From Chryseobacterium lathyri (GTDB lineage: Bacteria; Bacteroidota; Bacteroidia; Flavobacteriales; Weeksellaceae): a DNA stretch of 64,000 nt. The translations under genes were made by a program, and so were the position numbers. Position 1 is the stretch's first letter; each line of letters opens with the position of its first letter. Location of the stretch: assembly GCF_003290185.1 (NCBI RefSeq), contig NZ_QNFY01000004.1, positions 289,168-353,167 on the forward strand, in the 5' to 3' direction. Positions 61,167-64,000 of this stretch are shown piece after piece. The notes under the pieces were generated by a model. It did no database searches. It was given only the letters and a program-made list of their open reading frames with translations, and was not told where the DNA came from.

Positions 61167-61721
61167 ATGATTTCAGAGAAGATAATTTTAGGGATTGATC
61201 CCGGAACAGCGATTATGGGTTTCGGCATTATTTCCGTGACCAAAAGTAAAATGGAAATGATTTCCATCCACGAGCTGATCCTGAAAAAATATCCGAACCA
61301 CGAAACAAAACTGAAATATATCTTTGATAAGACATTAGCTCTGATCGATGAATATCATCCTGATGAAGTCGCTCTGGAAGCTCCATTTTATGGGAAAAAC
61401 GTGCAGAGTATGCTTAAACTCGGCCGCGCACAAGGCGTTGCAATGGCCGCAAGCCTGTATAGAAATATTCCCATCACGGAATACTCTCCTAAAAAGATCA
61501 AAATGGCCATCACTGGAAACGGAAATGCCAGCAAGGAACAGGTAGCCGGAATGCTCCAGAACCTTTTAAAACTGAAAGAATTTCCTACCAAATATTTAGA
61601 TGCTTCAGATGGCTTGGCTGTTGCAGTCTGCCATCATTTTAATTCCGGGACTATTGCAGATACAAAATCCTACAGCGGATGGGATAGTTTTTTGAAACAG
61701 AATCCGGGGAGGGTGAAGTAA
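61167..61721 (+). CDS. ruvC: Crossover junction endodeoxyribonuclease RuvC
   Basis: Resolves Holliday junctions by paired nicks at the end of homologous recombination. The 184-residue protein has the RNase H-like fold with the first catalytic Asp11 in LGIDPGTAIMGFGI, the Glu in VALEAPFYGKNVQS, and the last acidic pair in YLDASDGLAVAVCHH. The length is normal. ruvA and ruvB are not adjacent. Confidence 0.95.
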   Translation: MISEKIILGIDPGTAIMGFGIISVTKSKMEMISIHELILKKYPNHETKLKYIFDKTLALIDEYHPDEVALEAPFYGKNVQSMLKLGRAQGVAMAASLYRNIPITEYSPKKIKMAITGNGNASKEQVAGMLQNLLKLKEFPTKYLDASDGLAVAVCHHFNSGTIADTKSYSGWDSFLKQNPGRVK

Positions 61722-62016
61722 AGTATGAGTTACCTTATAAAATATGAACTTTTTTATAAGTATAAGATGTTATTCTAGGTTCCAAGAGTTTTTTTCCGTT
61801 CTTTTCTATTAATTATTCCTGCATTTGTTTGGGTTGAATTTCTGTTATAATGGTTACACTCACAAGACTTGTTAATTAGAAGTTATAGCCTTTAATTTTA
61901 AACATCTCAGAAGTATATATGATGAAGGAGACGTTTCTACAACTAAAATACATTCTTCCTCTGCAAGTCTCTTTGCATTACTTTGATAATCTATACTGTT
62001 CGTAAAATGAAAAAAT
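61722..62016. other. Degenerate stretch after ruvC
   Basis: About 300 bases without an intact gene. On the minus strand a frame (61872-61990) reads AKRLAEEECILVVETSPSSY followed by ILLRCLKLKAITSN, which looks coding-like, but its upstream part runs into the plus-strand pseudogene. I take it as another possible gene remnant. No RNA gene seen. Confidence 0.35.
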
Positions 62017-62185
62017 AATGTTACCAACGAGATTTCTATAGAAAATACCGCAGTTCTGGAACAGCTAAAGCTTATCAACTAACTCGACAACGAAGAAAAA
62101 AATATTCTTCTAAAGCTCATTGAAACTCTCGTTTCCAAAAAAATGTTTTAAAGACTATTTACAGAAAAACATTGCTGCACTATAG
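62017..62185 (+). pseudogene. Remnant of a protein C-terminus (possibly an XRE-type regulator)
   Basis: One frame reads NVTNEISIENTAVLEQLKLI, then N, an in-frame TAA (62080-62082), then LDNEEKNILLKLIETLVSKK. After a shift in the A-run near 62140 it continues as FKDYLQKNIAAL and a stop (62183-62185). The helical, Leu-rich pattern resembles the tail of Flavobacteriia helix-turn-helix regulators of the XRE family, but this is weak. Upstream the frame has a further TGA. A decayed gene fragment is the simplest reading. Confidence 0.45.
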
Positions 62186-62221
62186 TTTGTTTCATATTTG
62201 GAAACAGAGCAACATAAAATA

Positions 62222-62250
62222 CAAAAACCACCGCAATTGCGATGGGTTCT
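62222..62250 (-). terminator. Intrinsic terminator of the RHS-immunity unit
   Basis: On the minus strand ACCCATCGC, loop AATT, GCGGTGGT then TTTT. One G-T pair in the stem. Confidence 0.65.
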
Positions 62251-62253
62251 TTT

Positions 62254-62286
62254 TTATCTGCCACACGATACAATCGTGTGGGAGCG
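62254..62286. repeat. Inverted repeat in the decayed region
   Basis: CCACACGAT, loop ACA, ATCGTGTGG: perfect 9-base arms without a T-run. It may be a remnant of a mobile element or an RNA hairpin; no transposase is nearby. Confidence 0.4.
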
Positions 62287-62324
62287 ATGGAAGTAGAGAT
62301 CGCATTTCTAATAAATTTTAAAAT

Positions 62325-62358
62325 AAAACCACTGTTTTTCACAGTGGTTATTTTTTTG
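62325..62358. terminator. Bidirectional intrinsic terminator
   Basis: AACCACTGT, loop TTTTC, ACAGTGGTT with T-rich sequence on both sides. Located 44 bases after the minus-strand membrane protein gene. Confidence 0.75.
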
Positions 62359-62401
62359 AGACGTAAAGACACCCGCGCCAGATTGGGAATATCCCTGTCA
62401 A

Positions 62402-62806
62402 TTAGGAAAATTTTAATCGTATAGATTTATAGAAGAATACCCATAATAAAACTACACTTATTATAATATTATAAATCCCCAGAGTTTTATCCGAAGGAGA
62501 ATACAAATATGTATAAGTAAAGTATTCCATTGTAAAAAATAATATTACAGAAAGTAAAAAATATATTCCTTTATTTATTTTAAAAATAAAATATAGAGGT
62601 AAAATTAAAACCAATATTAAAGGGATTGTATATATTGAAACAAATAAAATATAATTTAAAGTAAGTTTAGATACTTCAGATGATGTTCCAGCATTATCTA
62701 AAACAATATTTTTAAATCGATCTCCAATAAAAGCAAGTAGAAAAAAGAAAAAAATGTACTTAATTATTAAATACAAAAAGGTACTGATTAAATTAGTTTT
62801 AAGCAT
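62402..62806 (-). CDS. Small membrane protein, candidate RHS immunity protein
   Basis: A 134-residue protein with four hydrophobic helices (about residues 8-28, 48-72, 78-98 and 108-126) and few conserved-looking features. I recognise no family. It starts one base after the stop of the RHS gene (TAATATG) and is strikingly AT-rich compared with its surroundings. Position, size and coupling are those of immunity genes that follow polymorphic toxins; a membrane-embedded immunity protein would fit a toxin acting at the inner membrane or in the periplasm. The role is inference from context. Confidence 0.6.
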   Translation of the reverse strand: MLKTNLISTFLYLIIKYIFFFFLLAFIGDRFKNIVLDNAGTSSEVSKLTLNYILFVSIYTIPLILVLILPLYFIFKINKGIYFLLSVILFFTMEYFTYTYLYSPSDKTLGIYNIIISVVLLWVFFYKSIRLKFS

Positions 62807-62807
62807 A

Positions 62808-64000
62808 TTAATTTCTTTTATAAAATTTTGATGGATAATATGAAAAATCTCTTTTAGGGGCTGTTGTTCCTCTTGGAGTTACAGTAATTCCTGATGCATT
62901 GGGTGCGGTATGGGTCCCCGGAAAAGATGGTTGATTATATTGCATTAAAAGATAATGATTCTGATAAGGATCACCATTACCTAAAACTGTTAGATCTGCC
63001 GAAGGAAATACATTCGTGGAAGCTTCTATTGAAAGATTGCCATTACTATTAGTAAAGTTAATATTAAGTTTTTGAGCAACATCTACAATCTTAAATCCTG
63101 CCGCATTTAATCCTAATTCTTCAATTGGAGATACACTTGCGTGCTGTTCAAAATTTACATTAATTCCTGTGGAAGTAGTACTCATTCCAAATACGTTATT
63201 ACTCCCCCCTTCTCCTGGATAAAAATCTCTTGGTGTACCAATAGGGGTAATTCCTGGTGCTGAAGAAAATTCTCCAACCATACTTGTTAATTCTCCTTGT
63301 TCATTCTCTCTGCCTGTTAATTTCAATGTACTTGTTAATTTGTTTCCCGCAGGATCTATAAAAGGAGGTGTTGGACCATCCCAAAGTTTCCCATCAATGT
63401 AGCTTCTAAAATTAAAAGTAAGTTCCTTCCCAAGATAGTATTCCCCATTTTTAGTTGTAGCTTGAGAATTGGCATTTTTATCCCAATAAATACTTCCATC
63501 TTGTCTTTGGACAAAATCATTTATTCCTCTTCCATCAGGATCAATAAAACGTATAGGATTGTTCACAGCGTAATTATAAGTTGAATGCCTTCTGTATTGT
63601 TCACTCAAAGGATCTACAACACCCCACCTCCCAATATCCGGCATATAAAATCTAGCTCCATAATCATACATCCCACTTTCCTGAAGCTCCTTGCCATTGT
63701 ACTTATACTGATAACTATAATTCCCAGGTAAACTGTTATAGCTGCCATGTTTTAATCCAAATGGGTAGTAATTGTTCTCTTCAACCACTTCAAGCATTGC
63801 TCCATTATTAAAATAACTCAATCTTACATTTCCTAAATGATCAATGTAATTATAAATATACTTATTTTTTTCAAAATCAAAATAACCCTCTGGTGTCGGT
63901 GCAAACTTTAATGTTGGAACCGTAGGAACCGTTGAACCAAATGTTTCCAGATTGTTATATTGAAATCCATCTAAGTAATCTGTATTCTGTTCAGCACCCG
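62808..64000 (-). CDS. RHS repeat-associated core protein with variable C-terminal tail (5' end outside window)
   Basis: The frame is open from the right edge (first complete codon ends at 63998) to a TAA at 62808, giving 396 visible residues. It contains YNYIDHLGNVRLSYF, NNYYPFGLKHGSY, YKYNGKELQESGMYDYGARF and MPDIGRWGVVDPLSEQYRR, then NPIRFIDPDG, the RHS core end found in Bacteroidetes. After IDPDG the remaining ~250 residues are not RHS: they are the variable tail that in such proteins is the toxin, here beta-rich and Asn/Ser/Gly/Pro-rich, of a type I do not recognise. A short Met-initiated frame begins at 63821, but the upstream codons continue the RHS sequence, so that is not the true start. 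Confidence 0.85.
   Translation of the reverse strand, partial: GAEQNTDYLDGFQYNNLETFGSTVPTVPTLKFAPTPEGYFDFEKNKYIYNYIDHLGNVRLSYFNNGAMLEVVEENNYYPFGLKHGSYNSLPGNYSYQYKYNGKELQESGMYDYGARFYMPDIGRWGVVDPLSEQYRRHSTYNYAVNNPIRFIDPDGRGINDFVQRQDGSIYWDKNANSQATTKNGEYYLGKELTFNFRSYIDGKLWDGPTPPFIDPAGNKLTSTLKLTGRENEQGELTSMVGEFSSAPGITPIGTPRDFYPGEGGSNNVFGMSTTSTGINVNFEQHASVSPIEELGLNAAGFKIVDVAQKLNINFTNSNGNLSIEASTNVFPSADLTVLGNGDPYQNHYLLMQYNQPSFPGTHTAPNASGITVTPRGTTAPKRDFSYYPSKFYKRN

What the first reader, a model, noticed from the sequence alone, without database searches (positions are those of the whole stretch)
62402..64000. RHS toxin tail of unrecognised type with a candidate membrane immunity protein
Seen: after the RHS core end (IDPDG) comes a ~250-residue tail unlike RHS repeats; one base after its stop an AT-rich gene encodes a four-helix membrane protein. 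Known: polymorphic RHS toxins carry a variable C-terminal toxin followed by its immunity gene. Inference: a new toxin-immunity pair; a membrane immunity protein suggests a toxin that acts on or from the periplasmic side.
Basis: partly seen in the sequence, partly recalled or inferred. Interest (0 to 1): 0.7.

Follow-up and report, generated by a model that had tools for sequence, protein, structure and literature searches.

The report
RHS toxin tail with envelope immunity
The end of a large RHS gene in this bacterium encodes a domain, shared by many Bacteroidota but matched by neither Pfam nor NCBIfam here, that is likely an antibacterial poison acting in the cell envelope, and the membrane-protein gene one base behind it is predicted to protect the producer.

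The parts
63531..63770 (-). end of the RHS associated core (TIGR03696); the frame continues to 63998 and is cut by the contig end
63432..63530 (-). linker, residues 1-33 of the tail (DFVQRQDGSIYWDKNANSQATTK and flanks), similar to the start of other RHS tails; presumed recombination joint
62811..63431 (-). predicted toxin domain, residues 34-240 of the tail: mostly beta, DUF3238-like fold
63120..63149 (-). conserved polar stretch EQHASVSPIE (E128, H130, E137), candidate functional residues
   Evidence: E128 132/134, H130 133/134, E137 132/134
62402..62806 (-). predicted immunity gene, 134-aa four-helix membrane protein (class A), one base after the toxin stop
62327..62349 (.). terminator-like hairpin behind the immunity gene, T-run on both strands
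   Evidence: 4 such sites in 61700-64000, 1.1 expected from shuffles

Best explanation
The 240-residue tail of this truncated RHS gene is likely a toxin domain that would act on the periplasmic face of a rival's inner membrane, and the four-helix membrane protein encoded one base downstream is predicted to be its immunity protein. Shown here: the two-gene order is fixed, the tail is one of many that follow the same RHS core, and its partner is a membrane or lipid-anchored protein in every intact locus read although the partner's family changes. Inferred: the RHS protein, which in 7 of 8 relatives with a readable start begins with what looks like a Sec signal peptide, is exported through the producer's own periplasm; its RHS shell carries the tail to a neighbour; the tail, a mostly-beta domain with conserved Glu, His, Gln and Arg residues and no hydrophobic helix, works as an enzyme (or tight binder) on an envelope target such as a lipid-linked precursor; and the immunity protein blocks it at the membrane, either from within the bilayer (four-helix class) or by a domain held in the periplasm (three-helix or lipoprotein class). 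This is how colicin M and its two immunity types work.
Against: No toxicity or rescue data. Membrane or lipid-anchored next genes are common behind other RHS tails of this genome too (by eye 9 of 13 read), so envelope location may reflect this delivery route as much as this toxin's target. DUF3238 does not always have a membrane neighbour: of 5 loci read, 2 have one on the same strand, 1 has one on the opposite strand, 2 (Nostoc L074, Paenibacillus L075) have none. Tail and DUF3238 are not linked by sequence: hhalign 1.6% and 9%; in a second test the score 22.5 was reached by 4 of 100 block-shuffled profiles, and the unrelated class B profile scored 20.5. The DUF3238 motif G-D-x-R is in 21 of 21 DUF3238 rows but only 9 of 134 tail rows. 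Foldseek alone gave no PDB match below E 0.24. No catalytic residue can be assigned. L037 and L038 partners are only 23% and 17% identical to the window's.
Confidence: 0.75

Rival explanations
1. Toxin-immunity pair, but the toxin acts in the cytoplasm (for example on nucleic acid or NAD) and the membrane protein blocks its entry across the inner membrane rather than its activity.
Against: Class B partners appear to put a folded domain outside the membrane, and the lipoprotein versions have no helix bundle with which to block a channel; partner kinds without detectable relation would all have to block uptake.
Confidence: 0.1
2. The tail is a membrane pore former neutralised by a membrane protein.
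For: Membrane-depolarising toxins can have polytopic immunity proteins (EsxX with ExiCD, abstract of PMC12744356).
Against: No hydrophobic helix (at most 1.12 in 19 tails); the model is a compact mostly-beta fold at pLDDT 95; conserved polar residues look enzymatic. A beta-barrel pore made by oligomers is not excluded.
Confidence: 0.1
3. The tail is a structural or adhesive end of the RHS protein and the downstream gene an unrelated membrane gene.
For: No lethality test exists; DUF3238 also occurs as a lone gene (Nostoc L074, with a signal-like start by eye, and Paenibacillus L075).
Against: Tails change behind a conserved core and a similar linker, with other next genes; 22 of 22 intact loci read keep a membrane or lipoprotein gene there while its family changes; a second core-tail-immunity cassette stands in tandem in L023.
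Confidence: 0.05

Closest known systems
Polymorphic RHS toxins with a C-terminal toxin and downstream immunity gene (PMC3482391, passages; PMC3150448, listing only)
   Same: RHS core ending in DPDG, variable tail, immunity-like gene directly downstream, a tandem core-tail-immunity cassette, many tails per genome
   Different: The toxin domain matches no Pfam or NCBIfam toxin family tested; partners are several membrane or lipoprotein kinds. PMC3482391 calls all but few immunity proteins cytoplasmic, and names as exceptions two two-helix families, secreted or TM partners of an L,D peptidase toxin, and one lipoprotein (Imm65).
DUF3238 (PF11579; structure 3c5p, function unknown)
   Different: No DUF3238 match for any of 19 tails; profile comparison not significant; G-D-x-R motif in 21 of 21 against 9 of 134 rows
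Colicin M-like bacteriocins with PmiA/BmiA (integral) or Cmi/PmiB/BmiB (anchored periplasmic) immunity (PMC5277000, abstract and passages)
   Same: One toxin family with two immunity topologies: a ~137-aa four-helix protein, or an anchored periplasmic domain; pmiA lies downstream of the toxin gene on the same strand
   Different: No Colicin M family match; the stand-out fold match is DUF3238; carried by RHS instead of a colicin; activity unknown
4o4a, putative lipoprotein of unknown function
   Different: Low TM-scores (0.28-0.41), no sequence match; genome context not examined

Membership tests
polymorphic RHS toxin-immunity locus | RHS associated core directly before a variable C-terminal domain | tested here: met
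   TIGR03696 E 2.4e-16, then tail; other cores of the genome carry other tails
polymorphic RHS toxin-immunity locus | dedicated small gene directly downstream, tied to the tail | tested here: met
   18 of 18 relatives; co-occurrence in 148 and 395 genomes
polymorphic RHS toxin-immunity locus | tail is toxic and the downstream gene rescues | not testable with these tools
   needs expression assays
polymorphic RHS toxin-immunity locus | complete RHS shell and export signal in the window's own gene | not testable with these tools
   contig ends inside the core; relatives have signal-like starts in 7 of 8 readable frames
DUF3238 (PF11579) | match to the Pfam model | tested here: not met
   not among the families matched by any of 19 tails at E<=1
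DUF3238 (PF11579) | same fold as 3c5p | tested here: met
DUF3238 (PF11579) | profile-profile similarity above chance | tested here: inconclusive
   score 22.5; 4 of 100 block shuffles as high; reversed profile 15.2; unrelated class B profile 20.5
DUF3238 (PF11579) | conserved G-D-x-R motif | tested here: not met
   21 of 21 DUF3238 rows, 9 of 134 tail rows
Colicin M family | sequence match to the Pfam entry (that Pfam holds one is recalled) | tested here: not met
   not among the families matched by any of 19 tails at E<=1
Colicin M family | same fold | tested here: inconclusive
   not among the listed structural rows, which does not exclude it
Colicin M family | hydrolysis of lipid II | not testable with these tools
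   needs biochemistry

The most novel reading that the evidence does not exclude
The tail and DUF3238 are two branches of one cross-phylum toxin superfamily, carried by RHS proteins in Bacteroidota and by DNRLRE surface proteins and viruses elsewhere, all built on a fold of unknown activity and countered at the membrane by several immunity families that arose independently; it would be a new class of periplasm-acting toxin and would give a first function to DUF3238 and to the 4o4a-type lipoprotein domain.
Probability: 0.4. Interest if true: 0.72.

Novelty: new variant of a known kind. Interest (0 to 1): 0.52.

Why it matters
It points out a widespread toxin-like family of Bacteroidota that Pfam and NCBIfam do not recognise, ties it by predicted fold to a solved protein of unknown function, and shows one tail family that has changed between membrane or lipid-anchored partners without detectable relation. 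That makes the target compartment testable with a single experiment and proposes a function for DUF3238, a name that none of the 15 papers listed by my search carries.

Tried and rejected
Foldseek against PDB and viral models gave no significant match for the toxin. The PDB sequence hits of the toxin profile were RHS core only, brought in by full-length rows. Of 19 tails scanned, four Pfam families matched one member each, the best DUF4479 at 1.1e-4; with 1 of 19 members this was not followed. Pfam matches of the partners (MscS_TM in 2 of 13 class A, best 2e-4; Tetraspanin in 3 of 6 class B, best 0.0018, under the cut-off where shown; others single) were treated as hydrophobicity. Rfam found nothing. 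hhalign could not join tail and DUF3238; a control, tails against class B, gave the same level. Class A profile against 61 class B rows: one weak biased match, 4.5e-4. The Priestia four-helix gene resembles the viral-contig one and L064's above shuffles (z 5.7 each), hardly class A (0.9-1.9; other DUF3238 partners 1.8-3.0); the shuffle ignores hydrophobic blocks, so no homology is claimed. Whether 3c5p-like and 4o4a-like genes are neighbours was not examined: no Bacillus chromosome was within reach, and the one Bacillales locus read with a close DUF3238 match (Paenibacillus L075) has no lipoprotein neighbour. Shared exact contig lengths of class B proteins and listed tails (5, counted by eye) are only a proxy. 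A search for further viral relatives of L072 found only itself, and phage records had none. That 3c5p is DUF3238 was first recalled and then confirmed. Rows dropped: A2 used 117 of the 120 listed of 284 proteins; A5 20 of 75; A6 54 of 58. PHROGs and PADLOC were not searched.

Full report
What is there. The frame 62808-63998 on the minus strand is the 3' end of an RHS gene. It runs off the window because contig C4 ends there. TIGR03696 covers residues 77-156. The first 99 bases inward from this contig end are identical to the start of contig C10, where the same core continues into a different, JAB-like (by eye) tail with a lipoprotein-like next gene; the contig break is thus probably a repeat break. 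The tail begins after IDPDG and has 240 residues; one base after its stop starts a 134-aa gene with four hydrophobic segments. A terminator-like hairpin stands behind it.

Is the tail a family? In the window's protein NCBIfam sees only the RHS core and Pfam nothing at E up to 1. Of 19 tails, four Pfam families matched one member each, the best DUF4479 at 1.1e-4. A scan of genome contigs found 18 relatives, 43-71% identical in the best segment, in Chryseobacterium, Pedobacter, Hufsiella, Rhabdobacter, Arcicella and others. A protein search found 284, of which 120 were listed. Residues E128, H130, E137, Q153, T172, P176, Q200 and R239 are kept in at least 132 rows of a 134-row alignment.

Is it a module? 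The window's frame has 24 matches in this genome and only the window's copy has this tail. The first ~35 residues of the tail are a linker: in the family search 10 of 17 matches cover only that part, and in 11 of 11 such loci read (those 10 and L066) a different sequence follows, with a different next gene where one was found; several of the 11 are alike. L023 carries a second core-tail-immunity cassette in tandem.

The partner. In 18 of 18 loci the first ORF of at least 80 aa behind the tail encodes a membrane protein or lipoprotein. Counting the window, G060, G099 and G154 there are 22 intact loci: class A four-helix 14, class B three helices plus domain 6, class B lipoprotein 1 (L032), another four-helix protein 1 (L036). 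G130 was left out because its contig has the length of L028's and is taken as the same genome; G043 (tail frameshifted) also has a class A gene, and G124's tail is decayed. Class A is 17-72% identical to the window's protein, less conserved than the tails (46-75%); L037 and L038 are its weakest members. Class B has 58 homologues; of 11 read, chosen mainly as short or weak ones, 7 look like lipoproteins. Its model (pLDDT 89.7) shows three helices and a mixed domain whose best match is 4o4a, a putative lipoprotein of unknown function (TM-scores low). Class A and class B show no relation (hhalign 0.4%). On the tail tree (23 rows, with the second L023 cassette) the partner kinds need 4 changes where 2 is the least possible; 0 of 200 shuffles were as low. 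Partners thus mostly travel with the tail yet have been exchanged.

Specificity. Among 395 Bacteroidota genomes the tail over most of its length is in 4 (in G043 in two pieces), and each is followed by class A or B; class B occurs once, behind a tail; class A occurs four times, three behind tails and once as an incomplete piece near a contig start. Among 148 genomes of the family class A matched 8 times: 4 behind tails, 2 remnants (G136, G109), 2 with stops. Against specificity: membrane or lipid-anchored next genes also follow 9 of 13 other RHS tails of this genome, by eye, though the class A profile finds only the window's gene in it.

Mechanism. Of 12 loci looked at, 8 have an in-frame stop upstream of the RHS frame and 7 of these begin with a signal-like peptide by eye, so such proteins likely cross the producer's periplasm, where an envelope-acting toxin would need an immunity protein. 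All partner kinds read sit in the membrane or look lipid-anchored; in the three-helix class the N-terminus and second loop are basic, which predicts the domain outside, and the lipoprotein form fits that. The tail has no hydrophobic helix and has conserved acid, His, Gln and Arg residues, which favours an enzyme or binder over a helical pore. Colicin M is the nearest precedent in logic: one lipid II-cleaving domain met by a ~137-aa four-helix PmiA or by anchored periplasmic Cmi and PmiB (PMC5277000, abstract and passages). I put toxin-immunity at about 0.9, periplasmic action at about 0.75, and an enzyme on a lipid-linked envelope substrate at about 0.35.

Prior work. PMC3482391 (passages only) calls all but few immunity proteins cytoplasmic and names as exceptions two two-helix families, secreted or TM partners of an L,D peptidase toxin, and one lipoprotein family. 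A library search for DUF3238, lmo2686, BAS0735 and 3C5P listed 15 papers, none with DUF3238 or BAS0735. The searches (capped listings, read as listings apart from the passages cited) showed no title or abstract start that describes this tail. The held library lacks most subscription journals.

Noticed in passing
own genome G000, contigs C3, C4, C6, C8, C10, C12, C13, C15, C17, C18, C19, C28: 24 matches to the window's RHS frame, among them a row of core-tail cassettes with their own small next genes on C6:1.7-17 kb. By eye, of 13 other tails read, 6 are followed by multi-helix membrane genes, 3 by lipoprotein-like genes, 4 by soluble ones: envelope-located immunity seems common here.
   Followed up: partly
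L002 (G000:C10:1-2039): Core identical to the window's over the first 99 bases of the contig ends, but a JAB-like tail (by eye) with a lipoprotein-like next gene, recalling the Tox-JAB-1/Imm65 pairing in PMC3482391.
   Followed up: no
window 62154-62297: Piece between the immunity gene and the ruvC-like gene (named by eye) that also occurs behind another RHS cassette (L005, C12); contains the palindrome CCACACGATACAATCGTGTGG, present at only these two places of the genome with up to 2 mismatches.
   Followed up: partly
L055, L048, L049, L050, L066: Other RHS tails behind a similar linker: L055 looks GIY-YIG-like by eye, L048-L050 share one unnamed tail with a ~111-aa next gene, L066 has another short tail.
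   Followed up: no
G136:C7:200007-200246, G109:C28:182201-182551, G441:C11:159-455: Truncated or startless class A genes without the toxin: leftovers of lost cassettes or orphan immunity genes in decay.
   Followed up: partly
L073 3618-3998 and L072 4633-5004: Four-helix genes beside DUF3238 on a Priestia plasmid and on a viral contig that resemble each other, a possible further immunity family for DUF3238.
   Followed up: partly
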